Assembly: GCA_002688325.1 (NCBI GenBank) | Contig: NZCS01000031.1 | Location: 1-43,231, forward strand | Direction of reading: 5' to 3' | Length of the DNA stretch: 43,231 nt | Origin: an archaeon | GTDB taxonomy: Archaea > Nanobdellota > Nanobdellia > SCGC-AAA011-G17 > ARS1178 | In this document: positions 19,630 to 29,095 of the stretch, piece by piece | Position numbering within the stretch: the stretch's first letter is position 1 | Layout: each line of letters opens with the position of its first letter | Translations under genes and position numbers: made by a program | The notes under the pieces: model-generated | Seen by the model: only the letters and a program-made list of their open reading frames with translations | What the model was told of the DNA's origin: nothing | Database searches by the model: none

Positions 19630-19689
19630 AAAAACTTTATAAAAGCAAAATTCTCTATTATTCTTATGCGCCGATAGTTCAACGGTTAG

Positions 19690-19708
19690 AGAACTAAAAT
19701 TCGACTAA
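19690..19708 (+). other. tRNA-Gly intron 1, 19 nt, position 22/23 (D-arm)
   Basis: A small bulge-helix-bulge can be drawn: central helix GGTT with GACT (two G-U pairs), 5' bulge AG^A, 3' bulge AA^A, inner stem GAA/TTC around loop CTAAAA. The outer helix is weak, so this is a relaxed motif. Excision restores D-stem GTTC/GAAT. The exact cut could shift by one base without changing the product. Confidence 0.75.
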
Positions 19709-19738
19709 AATTCTGGCCTTCCAAGCCAGCGATCCGAG

Positions 19739-19768
19739 AAACATCAGAAAAACTTAGATGTTCGGAAT
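19739..19768 (+). other. tRNA-Gly intron 2, 30 nt, position 53/54 (T-arm)
   Basis: A full bulge-helix-bulge is visible: outer helix CGA/TCG, central helix TCCG/CGGA, 5' bulge AG^A, 3' bulge AT^T, inner stem AACATC/GATGTT with loop AGAAAAACTTA. Cutting two bases into each bulge joins CCGAG directly to TTCGAAT, restoring the T-arm exactly. Confidence 0.88.
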
Positions 19769-19853
19769 TTCGAATCTCGGTCGGCGCATTTTCTTTACTT
19801 TATCAGTTAAATTACCAAAACTATTTAAGTAAACAATATTTACTAATTTTAAA

Positions 19854-22181: not shown

Positions 22182-22298
22182 CGGACCCGATGAGACTTTC
22201 TAACCTTTTTTGGTGAAGCTTTTTCCTAAAAAGATTCTTTGAACTCACGACCTACAGATTAGGAATCTGTCGCTCTATCCTAGCTGAGCTACGGGTCC
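22182..22298 (-). tRNA. tRNA-Arg (anticodon CCU) with a 42-nt T-loop intron
   Basis: On the minus strand, acceptor GGACCCG pairs with CGGGTCC, discriminator G, no encoded CCA. D-arm is GCTC-AGCTAGGATA-GAGC, anticodon arm ACAGA-TTCCTAA-TCTGT (anticodon at plus 22261-22263), T-stem GTGAG/CTCAT. The T-loop is interrupted; removing 22196-22237 gives TTCAAAT, a normal seven-base loop. A TATA-like TATAAATTT lies about 20 bases upstream of the 5' end. Confidence 0.92.
22196..22237 (-). other. tRNA-Arg intron, 42 nt, position 59/60, similar to the dispersed hairpin element
   Basis: Bulge-helix-bulge: outer helix is the T-stem (GAG/CTC), central helix TTCA/AGAA with one A-A mismatch, bulges AA^G and AG^T, inner stem AATCTTTTT/AAAAAGGTT with one G-U. 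Most of the intron (22206-22237) aligns with the intergenic element at 27870-27902, sharing AATCTTTTT, AAAAAGCTT and ACCAAAAAA in the same order (minus strand). Confidence 0.85.
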
Positions 22299-27809: not shown

Positions 27810-27869
27810 ACTTCTAAAAAGAATAAAAGGCTATATAAAATTATCTAACTGTTAAAAGAAAAAGGAATA

Positions 27870-27902
27870 TTTTTTGGTTAAGCTTTTTTTCTAAAAAAGA
27901 TT
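27870..27902 (-). repeat. Dispersed hairpin/poly-T element, copy E (after tRNA-Leu)
   Basis: Starts one base past the tRNA-Leu 3' end. On the minus strand it reads AATCTTTTTTAG, a run of seven A, GCTTAACC and six A. On either strand it shows an oligo-T run with an adjacent hairpin (CTTTTTT/AAAAAAG). It is the closest relative of the tRNA-Arg intron. Confidence 0.65.
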
Positions 27903-27949
27903 ATGTGGGCGACAGGATTCGAACCTGCGTAAGCACTAAGCTAACAGGG

Positions 27950-27963
27950 ATCTCATATGTGAT
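27950..27963 (-). other. tRNA-Leu intron 2, 14 nt, position 37/38 (canonical site)
   Basis: Minus-strand ATCACATATGAGAT. Central helix CTCA/TGAG is perfect, bulges AG^A and AT^C. The outer helix is the anticodon stem ACAGG/CCTGT, which becomes complete only after intron 1 is removed. Confidence 0.75.
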
Positions 27964-27970
27964 CTTGAGC

Positions 27971-27982
27971 TTAGACATTATT
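27971..27982 (-). other. tRNA-Leu intron 1, 12 nt, position 30/31
   Basis: Minus-strand sequence AATAATGTCTAA. Central helix GGAC/GTCT (one G-U), bulges AG^A and AA^G, and an inner loop of only five bases (ATAAT), so the motif is minimal and the outer helix is weak. Excision completes anticodon-stem strand ACAGG. Confidence 0.7.
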
Positions 27983-28050
27983 CTGTCCCGTTTGACCACT
28001 CCGGCACGCCCACATACAAGTTCTACAATAAACCAACTTTATAAATATTT

Positions 28051-28083
28051 GGGTGACTACATTTTTTTATTTTTGTGGTCACC
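28051..28083. repeat. GGTGACxAC repeats at the 3' end of the Fic gene
   Basis: Plus strand GGGTGACTACAT (28051-28062) overlaps the Fic stop codon and lies just upstream of the tRNA-Leu TATA box. TGTGGTCACC (28074-28083) is an inverted copy inside the last Fic codons. They match the two copies in the Fic promoter (29020-29061). Confidence 0.6.
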
Positions 28084-29007
28084 TAATTCTTTTTTCAAAT
28101 TTTTATATTCCTTAAGAATTAATTCAACAGTTAACTTAATATCTCCTTTTTTCTGGTATTCTTGTAATGATTTGTAATATTCCATTCTATTTCTCATACT
28201 AATATTCACAGGAGGTAACTTATTCTTTAATAAAATATTATTCAATAACAATCTCCCAACTCTCCCATTACCATCAACAAAAGGATGTATATTCTCAAAT
28301 TGGTTATGGATTATTCCAGCTAATAATATTGGAGGATACTTATTTTTATATTTTTTATACCATTCAATTAATTCTTCCAATAAACCTTTAACTCTATTGG
28401 CAGGAGCACCCATATGAACAACATTACCTCTTCCATCTCTAATAACAACTTCCTCACCTTTTTTCCTAAATTTACCCGCAAAATCCTTAGAATTTTTAAA
28501 AACTATCAAATGTAATTTTTTAATCAAAGAAACAGAAATATGCTCTTTACTCTTTCTTATAAATTTAATCGCTTCTGCAACACCATAAGTTTCTGAAATA
28601 TCTTCTTTTCTTATATCATAAGGCCATTTATCTTTCTCTAAAACTTCTTTAACTTCTTTTTCATTTAATTCAGAACCTTCAATAGCATTTGTATTATATG
28701 TAAATAATTCTGTAAATAATTCCCATTTTTCTTTTGAAAATTTTATTTCTATTCTTTCTTTTTCTAATTCTTTGATTAACTTTACTTCTTTCTCAGTTAA
28801 CTCATATTTTAAAGGATCTCTTATTAGTTTATAACTCTCAATTTGTTCTTTTATAATTTCTTCTGCTCTTACTTTTAACTTTTCTATTTGCTTCTTACTT
28901 AAATCCATACCCAAATATCTTCTAATCTTCTTTACTTTCTTTCCTTCTCTAAATGAATGTGTTAAATAATATTTTTTCTTTTTTCCTATATCTCTAACTT
29001 CTATCAT
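28057..29007 (-). CDS. Fic-domain protein (AMPylase-type)
   Basis: 316 residues from ATG 29007. An in-frame start further upstream (29094) would run through the promoter and add an unlikely hydrophobic leader. The catalytic loop HPFVDGNGRVGRLLLNN matches HPFxxGNGR. An N-terminal segment has TNAIEGSELNEKEV, the TxxxIEGN/S-type inhibitory or substrate-binding helix found ahead of Fic cores. It transfers AMP or another nucleotide moiety onto a target protein. The first 60 residues are basic. The promoter has a TATA-like TTAAATA and two GGTGACCACA repeats, one between TATA and ATG, so autoregulation is likely. It is divergent from a zinc-ribbon-like gene. Confidence 0.88.
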   Translation of the reverse strand: MIEVRDIGKKKKYYLTHSFREGKKVKKIRRYLGMDLSKKQIEKLKVRAEEIIKEQIESYKLIRDPLKYELTEKEVKLIKELEKERIEIKFSKEKWELFTELFTYNTNAIEGSELNEKEVKEVLEKDKWPYDIRKEDISETYGVAEAIKFIRKSKEHISVSLIKKLHLIVFKNSKDFAGKFRKKGEEVVIRDGRGNVVHMGAPANRVKGLLEELIEWYKKYKNKYPPILLAGIIHNQFENIHPFVDGNGRVGRLLLNNILLKNKLPPVNISMRNRMEYYKSLQEYQKKGDIKLTVELILKEYKNLKKELGDHKNKKM

Positions 29008-29019
29008 ACATATATAATG

Positions 29020-29061
29020 GGTGACCACATATTTAAGCTTTTCTGTTTTTAGGTGACCACA
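29020..29061. promoter_or_regulatory. Twin GGTGACCACA operator-like repeats in the Fic/129-residue divergent promoter
   Basis: Exact 10-bp copies at 29020-29029 and 29052-29061, 32 bp apart (about three helical turns), same orientation. The first sits between the Fic TATA (minus strand, about 29030-29037) and its leaderless ATG. The second sits just upstream of the TATA-like CTTTAAAAAG of the 129-residue gene. A regulator bound here could act on both promoters. Confidence 0.6.
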
Positions 29062-29095
29062 AAACTTTAAAAAGATTAAGATATTGTAACTCAAA

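What the first reader, a model, noticed from the sequence alone, without database searches (positions are those of the whole stretch)
27904..28013. tRNA-Leu with 12-nt and 14-nt micro-introns that may need ordered splicing
Seen: removing 12 nt at 30/31 and 14 nt at 37/38 gives a proper class II tRNA-Leu(CAA). The central helices pair (GGAC/GTCT and CTCA/TGAG), but the 5-bp stem that forms the outer helix of intron 2 exists only after intron 1 is gone. Established: archaeal tRNA introns are rarely this short, and BHB cutting needs both bulges to be exposed. Inference: the endonuclease must accept a minimal inner loop of five bases, and splicing is likely sequential.
Basis: partly seen in the sequence, partly recalled or inferred. 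Interest (0 to 1): 0.7.

Follow-up and report, generated by a model that had tools for sequence, protein, structure and literature searches.

The report
tRNA-Leu gene with two tiny introns
In a tiny archaeon, one leucine tRNA gene is interrupted by two very short introns that relatives also carry, and the group appears to splice such unusual introns with a single simple enzyme that current rules say should not manage it.

Summary
The minus strand at 27904-28013 encodes tRNA-Leu(CAA) with a 12-nt intron at 30/31 and a 14-nt intron at 37/38. An unbiased intron search returns this as the best parse, and 0 of 200,000 shuffles reproduce it. Relatives in the same order (Woesearchaeota by record titles) support both introns. 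Fifteen tRNA-Leu genes from nine families have a 30/31 intron; eleven of those also have a 37/38 intron. With boundaries set by exons alone, the 30/31 central helix pairs in 60 of 60 cells, and pair 27 uses all four Watson-Crick types.

Introns of 12-14 nt are ordinary in archaea. Splicing 30/31 first is favoured but not obligatory: the anticodon stem can form around a bulged intron 1 at about 2 kcal/mol cost.

The larger point lies outside the coordinates. Of 61 genomes searched, 57 carry exactly one EndA gene, of M. jannaschii alpha4 type without the CSL/ASL loops. The two tRNA sets examined nevertheless have many non-canonical introns, including a tRNA-Leu(UAA) with four. Published rules say alpha4 enzymes cannot do this. 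Splicing itself is inferred; no RNA data were available.

The parts
27904..28013 (-). tRNA-Leu(CAA) gene (110 nt; 84 nt mature)
27971..27982 (-). intron 1, AATAATGTCTAA, 12 nt, position 30/31
   Evidence: same-position introns in 14 other tRNA-Leu genes of the order
27950..27963 (-). intron 2, ATCACATATGAGAT, 14 nt, position 37/38
   Evidence: also present in 10 of the other 14 genes with a 30/31 intron
27985..27988 (-). exon strand (25-28, GGAC) of the central helix of intron 1
   Evidence: 60/60 cells paired across 15 genes
27973..27976 (-). intron strand (GTCT) of the central helix of intron 1
27966..27969 (-). exon strand (32-35, CTCA) of the central helix of intron 2
27952..27955 (-). intron strand (TGAG) of the central helix of intron 2
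27965..27967 (-). anticodon CAA
28038..28045 (-). TATA-like box TTTATAAA, 24 nt upstream of nucleotide 1
   Evidence: sequence; position judged by eye
27893..27898 (-). T-run downstream of the gene, likely terminator
   Evidence: sequence; judged by eye

Best explanation
This is a working tRNA-Leu(CAA) gene whose transcript carries two minimal introns of the archaeal bulge-helix type. The cell's one splicing endonuclease (EndA, gene on contig C32) cuts both. Each intron's 4-bp central helix joins exon bases (25-28 for intron 1, 32-35 for intron 2) to intron bases, with cuts two nucleotides 3' of each helix strand. Intron 1 is a bare 4-bp hairpin (8-nt loop) next to the D stem and has no outer helix. 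It is probably removed first, because bases 27 and 28 cannot sit in its helix and in the anticodon stem at once. Once it is gone, 27-31 pairs with 39-43 and gives intron 2 a standard outer helix. RtcB would join the exons. Shown: gene, introns, covariation, single EndA, RtcB present. Inferred: expression, cutting, order, ligation. The wider inference is that EndA in this order, though of alpha4 type by gene count, length, fold and lack of CSL/ASL loops, accepts relaxed motifs at many tRNA positions.
For: Top parse and unique solution; 0/200,000 shuffles. Same introns in relatives: 15 tRNA-Leu genes with 30/31, 11 of them with 37/38 too; orthologs with either intron alone or none. Helix: 60/60 cells paired at the true register against 5-33/60 at shifts of 1-3, and 0/10,000 partner shuffles reach 60 (mean 50); pair 27 is A-U, G-C, C-G or U-A. 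EndA: one PF01974 match in own genome; 58 of 61 genomes have one or more, 57 of them exactly one; PF02778 agrees. In single-contig relatives G031 and G005 a profile that finds the N. equitans beta subunit in the PDB (E 8e-18) finds no second copy up to E 10. EndA aligns to M. jannaschii EndA over residues 32-189 without a gap and its model is closest to 1a79. RtcB present. Non-canonical introns throughout G000 and G031.
Against: No RNA data, so expression and splicing are not shown. The computed minimum-energy fold of the precursor is not a cloverleaf (-38.5 against about -25 kcal/mol), so the energies bear weakly on order. The genome is 72% complete, so a second EndA subunit could lie in the missing part; the relatives argue against this. 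The profile does not detect crenarchaeal beta subunits, so a very divergent beta subunit in the whole order is not excluded.
Confidence: 0.88

Rival explanations
1. A single larger intron with a different fold, such as ARAGORN's tRNA-Ile(AAT) with one 26-nt intron.
For: ARAGORN with introns allowed reports it; the finder's second-best parse is also an AAT reading with one 35-nt intron.
Against: It scores lower than the two-intron parse (44.4 against 47.2). Intronless orthologs keep the exon CTCAAG, not AATAATG. A Leu-type class II arm with A73 and an A34 Ile anticodon would be anomalous in archaea (established knowledge).
Confidence: 0.02
2. A decayed or pseudo-tRNA whose insertions are not removed.
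For: Only one Leu(CAA) gene was found, in a 72%-complete genome; UUG codons could be read by Leu(UAA) instead.
Against: Every stem of the mature form is intact, the intron helix covaries across nine families, a TATA-like box and a T-run flank the gene, and eleven genes in the order share the two-intron form.
Confidence: 0.05
3. EndA here is in fact a heterotetramer like that of N. equitans, with an unrecognised beta subunit, so nothing about the enzyme is unusual.
For: Among solved structures the family profile scores best against the N. equitans catalytic subunit. It has the invariant Trp (W186) that the N. equitans, S. tokodaii, M. kandleri and ARMAN-2 chains show at this column, where M. 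jannaschii has Tyr.
Against: 57 of the 58 genomes with EndA have exactly one copy. G031 and G005 show no second match up to E 10 with a profile that does find the N. equitans beta subunit. The N-terminal domain, lost in some heterotetramer subunits, is kept.
Confidence: 0.25
4. Strictly ordered splicing: intron 2 cannot be cut before intron 1 is gone.
For: Bases 27 and 28 are needed by both the intron 1 helix and the anticodon stem, and intron 2 has only pair 31:39 as outer helix in the fully folded precursor.
Against: With intron 1 bulged out, pairs 27-30:40-43 plus 31:39 form at about 2 kcal/mol cost (-23.6 against -25.6). Relatives with a 37/38 intron alone or a 30/31 intron alone exist.
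Confidence: 0.35

Closest known systems
Multi-intron archaeal pre-tRNAs (Thermoproteales, N. equitans, ARMAN, Caldiarchaeum, Asgard Atabeyarchaeia)
   Same: Two or more bulge-helix introns per tRNA, at canonical and non-canonical positions. 30/31 is a published insertion point (PMC4090602).
   Different: The described lineages with an assigned enzyme have (alpha beta)2, epsilon2 or loop-bearing EndA. Here the order encodes one loop-less alpha-type subunit. The intron pair (12+14 nt) is at the short end of the known range.
M. jannaschii alpha4 EndA (PDB 1a79)
   Same: Same length class, gapless alignment over residues 32-189, closest solved fold, single gene per genome.
   Different: Reported to cut only strict BHB at 37/38 (PMC6379350, PMC4033280). 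The Woesearchaeota enzyme must serve D-loop, 25/26, 30/31, 53/54 and 59/60 introns, and it has Trp at the column where M. jannaschii has Tyr.
A. pernix unspliced tRNA-Lys(CUU)
   Same: A pre-tRNA without the helix flanking the central helix on the exon side, like intron 1 here (PMC4307357).
   Different: Cut by a crenarchaeal (alpha beta)2 enzyme with the CSL loop.
N. equitans split tRNA-Lys joined at 30/31
   Same: Same position, 30/31 (PMC4090602).
   Different: Trans-spliced halves with a heterotetrameric EndA; here an ordinary cis intron.

Membership tests
Archaeal tRNA intron of the BHB/relaxed BHB kind | removal restores a complete tRNA | tested here: met
Archaeal tRNA intron of the BHB/relaxed BHB kind | 4-bp central helix, exon to intron, cuts two nt 3' of each strand | tested here: met
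   4/4 pairs in both introns; covariation for intron 1
Strict hBHBh' motif | outer and inner helices flanking both 3-nt bulges | tested here: not met
   Intron 1 has no outer helix and only a 5-nt inner loop; intron 2 has a 7-nt inner loop and a full outer helix only after intron 1 is removed (sequence)
Archaeal tRNA intron of the BHB/relaxed BHB kind | cut by EndA and joined by RtcB in the cell | not testable with these tools
   genes for both present; no RNA or enzyme data
alpha4-type EndA | single ~180-aa catalytic subunit with N- and C-terminal domains, one gene per genome | tested here: met
   189 aa; PF02778 and PF01974 both matched once; single-contig relatives G031 and G005 have one copy
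alpha4-type EndA | homotetramer | not testable with these tools
   inferred from gene count only
Broad-specificity EndA with CSL or ASL loop | inserted loop with conserved Lys next to the active site | tested here: not met
   The family profile shows gaps of 11 residues against S. tokodaii EndA and 7 against ARMAN-2 in this N-terminal stretch and no gap against M. jannaschii EndA; that these gaps are the CSL/ASL is inferred
(alpha beta)2-type EndA | second, structural subunit gene | tested here: inconclusive
   none found in G031 or G005 up to E 10; the profile detects the N. equitans beta subunit but not crenarchaeal ones
(alpha beta)2/epsilon2-type EndA | Arg + Trp pair that grips the first bulged base | tested here: inconclusive
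   W186 and R159 are invariant in 24 sequences and Trp aligns with the N. equitans, S. tokodaii, M. kandleri and ARMAN-2 chains; equivalence to the published contact residues is inferred

The most novel reading that the evidence does not exclude
A whole order of Woesearchaeota splices relaxed, non-canonical and stacked tRNA introns (up to four in one tRNA) with a homotetrameric, loop-less EndA. This would break the rule that alpha4 enzymes accept only strict BHB motifs at 37/38 and that broad specificity requires a beta subunit or an inserted Lys loop.
Probability: 0.55. Interest if true: 0.72.

Novelty: new variant of a known kind. Interest (0 to 1): 0.55.

Why it matters
EndA type is used to explain where tRNA introns may sit, and to argue how archaeal and eukaryotic splicing enzymes evolved. 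A lineage with one plain subunit and many odd introns would show that specificity can broaden by small changes within the alpha subunit, or by relaxed substrate context, and that this enzyme state need not evolve through subunit duplication. The 12+14-nt pair is close to the geometric minimum for such introns and makes a compact test substrate for order and minimal recognition.

Tried and rejected
Tried: ARAGORN default and with introns: nothing, then the wrong isotype. Rfam with E-values on 27850-28080: only a sub-threshold tRNA-Sec match (21 bits against cut-off 47), which is the class II shape and not a Sec tRNA. Nearest-neighbour folding of the precursor does not give a cloverleaf and was used only to compare named conformers. 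Rejected: single 26-nt intron and pseudogene readings (see rivals). A first helix count that required 4/4 pairs by construction was replaced by one with boundaries set from exons only. Literature: the open library held one paper with both 'Woesearchaeota' and 'tRNA intron', on group I introns by title and abstract, and no paper found describes this enzyme-intron pairing; subscription papers could not be searched.

Full report
WHAT IS THERE. The sequence holds, on the minus strand at 27904-28013, a tRNA-Leu(CAA) gene with two insertions (coordinates). Removing AATAATGTCTAA (27971-27982, between positions 30 and 31) and ATCACATATGAGAT (27950-27963, between 37 and 38) gives an 84-nt class II tRNA with a perfect acceptor stem, a perfect anticodon stem ACAGG/CCTGT, loop CTCAAGC and A73. 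A TATA-like box lies 24 nt upstream and a T-run just downstream.

IS IT MORE THAN CHANCE. ARAGORN finds no tRNA by default. With introns it proposes tRNA-Ile(AAT) with one 26-nt intron. I wrote a finder that scores cloverleafs after removing zero, one or two introns of any position, requiring only a 4-bp central helix; its best parse is the two-intron Leu(CAA). Dropping the helix requirement and asking only for a paired anticodon stem and a Leu anticodon leaves exactly one solution, 12 + 14 nt. Shuffling the anticodon region gives the structure in 0 of 200,000 trials at fixed positions and 0 of 20,000 at any position.

RELATIVES. Neighbouring genomes are Woesearchaeota by record title; the genome has 606,505 bases and is 72% complete. 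Among tRNA-Leu genes of the order fifteen have an intron at 30/31. They come from G000, G054, G027, G015, G060, G013, G058, G031 (three genes), G026, G008, G038, G041 and G044, nine of the twenty families sampled. Eleven also have a 37/38 intron; other genes carry only a 37/38 intron or none. With boundaries fixed by exons alone, bases 25-28 pair with the intron in 60 of 60 cells. Sliding the intron strand by 1 to 3 bases gives 5 to 33 of 60. Exchanging intron strands between genes gives 50 on average and never 60 in 10,000 trials. Pair 27 occurs as A-U, G-C, C-G and U-A. That is direct evidence of a selected helix. The relatives have longer 30/31 introns (17-36 nt), several with an inner helix; the window's 12-nt version lacks it and is the shortest of the set.

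HOW IT WORKS, MOST LIKELY. The 37/38 intron has the usual geometry (CTCA:TGAG). The 30/31 intron uses bases 25-28 and therefore competes with the D stem at 25 and with the anticodon stem at 27 and 28. I compared named conformers of the precursor at 37 C: both intron helices formed -25.6 kcal/mol (D stem kept, three pairs in intron 1); anticodon stem formed around a bulged intron 1 plus intron 2 helix -23.6. Intron 1 first is thus favoured, since it needs nothing from intron 2 and its loss creates the continuous outer helix for intron 2, but the reverse order is not excluded. These energies are weak evidence: the unconstrained fold is a non-cloverleaf at -38.5. Intron 1 has no outer helix in any state, so its cutting depends on relaxed recognition. 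A. pernix tRNA-Lys(CUU) is a published case without the exon-side flanking helix (PMC4307357).

THE ENZYME. The own genome has one EndA gene (189 aa). Of 61 genomes searched, 58 match PF01974; 57 have exactly one copy and one has two. PF02778 gives the same picture, extra hits being far below cut-off. In the single-contig relatives G031 and G005 a profile of 24 EndA sequences finds one copy each up to E 10, although the same profile finds the N. equitans structural subunit in the PDB at E 8e-18. It does not list crenarchaeal beta chains, so a very divergent beta subunit is not excluded. The protein aligns with M. jannaschii alpha4 EndA from residue 32 to the end without a gap. Its model (mean pLDDT 85.8) is closest to that structure (TM 0.81/0.89). 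Insertions seen in S. tokodaii (11 residues) and ARMAN-2 (7 residues) in the N-terminal domain are absent; I infer that these are the CSL and ASL. Trp186 and Arg159 are invariant in the order. The N. equitans, S. tokodaii, M. kandleri and ARMAN-2 chains have Trp at that column and M. jannaschii has Tyr; the published Arg+Trp pair of (alpha beta)2 and epsilon2 enzymes (PMC12397907) probably corresponds. RtcB is present.

WHY THAT MATTERS. Reviews state that alpha4 and alpha'2 enzymes accept only canonical BHB motifs, and that relaxed motifs need (alpha beta)2 or epsilon2 enzymes, usually with a Lys loop (PMC6379350; PMC4033280; PMC4090602; PMC12397907). Here the tRNA sets hold many non-canonical introns. 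In G000: Lys(UUU) 37/38 + 53/54, Thr(GGU) 22/23 + 37/38, Phe 25/26, Gly(UCC) 22/23 + 53/54, and D-loop introns. In G031, a single contig of 829,411 bp: Lys(CUU) 53/54, Ala(UGC) 59/60, D-loop introns in Phe, Thr, Arg and Pro, and 30/31 in three Leu genes. G031 tRNA-Leu(UAA) has four introns (15, 21, 24, 17 nt); its exons equal those of the one-intron ortholog of G000 except one acceptor pair. The published maximum I found is three (PMC4033280); Asgard genomes are also reported rich in multiple introns (PMC11291895).

Sequence reading fully right; strand not stated (it is minus). The claim of unusual shortness is wrong (range 11-129 nt, medians mostly 12-25). Ordered splicing is plausible, not forced.

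LIMITS. No RNA or enzyme data. The own genome is incomplete. Subunit state is inferred from gene count. G031's completeness is given as 95% with one contig; circular closure was not tested. Some 37/38 helices in relatives have three or two of four pairs, so those boundaries rest on the exons. The catalogue of other non-canonical introns in G000 and G031 comes from my finder's best parse, checked by ortholog comparison only for the Leu genes.

Noticed in passing
L174 (G031:C1:105000-105500, + strand): tRNA-Leu(UAA) with four introns (15, 21, 24 and 17 nt at D-loop 15/16 and 22/23, 30/31 and 37/38); exons match the one-intron ortholog of the window's genome except one acceptor pair. Literature maximum found is three.
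   Followed up: yes
window 22182-22298 (-): tRNA-Arg(CCU) interrupted by a 42-nt intron at 59/60 in the T loop (22196-22237), central helix 3 of 4 pairs; Rfam sees only a truncated tRNA.
   Followed up: partly
window 19668-19788 (+): tRNA-Gly(UCC) with two introns, 19 nt at about 22/23 and 30 nt at 53/54, central helices 4 of 4 each.
   Followed up: partly
window 22206-22232 (-); G000:C17:7110-7136; eight further places: A dispersed AT-rich repeat (TTTTTAGGAAAAAGCTTAACCAAAAAA; 10 copies with up to 3 mismatches in the genome, control 0). One copy lies inside the tRNA-Arg 59/60 intron, one inside the tRNA-Ser(UGA) intron, and others or degenerate copies lie next to tRNA genes; it may be how some introns were gained or lengthened.
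   Followed up: partly
L054, L066, L074, L077, L125 (relatives): In several relatives the 37/38 intron of tRNA-Leu(CAA) has TAAG opposite CTCA, a C-A mismatch at base 34, as if the intron had been fitted to a UAA or UAG anticodon. Unexplained.
   Followed up: no
L096, L101, L104 and others against L001: The basic N-terminal tail of EndA (MAKKKKK in the window's genome) varies much in length and charge across the order.
   Followed up: no
window 28057-29094 (-): Protein upstream of the tRNA gene carries a Fic-like motif HPFVDGNGRVGRLL (motif recognised by eye).
   Followed up: no
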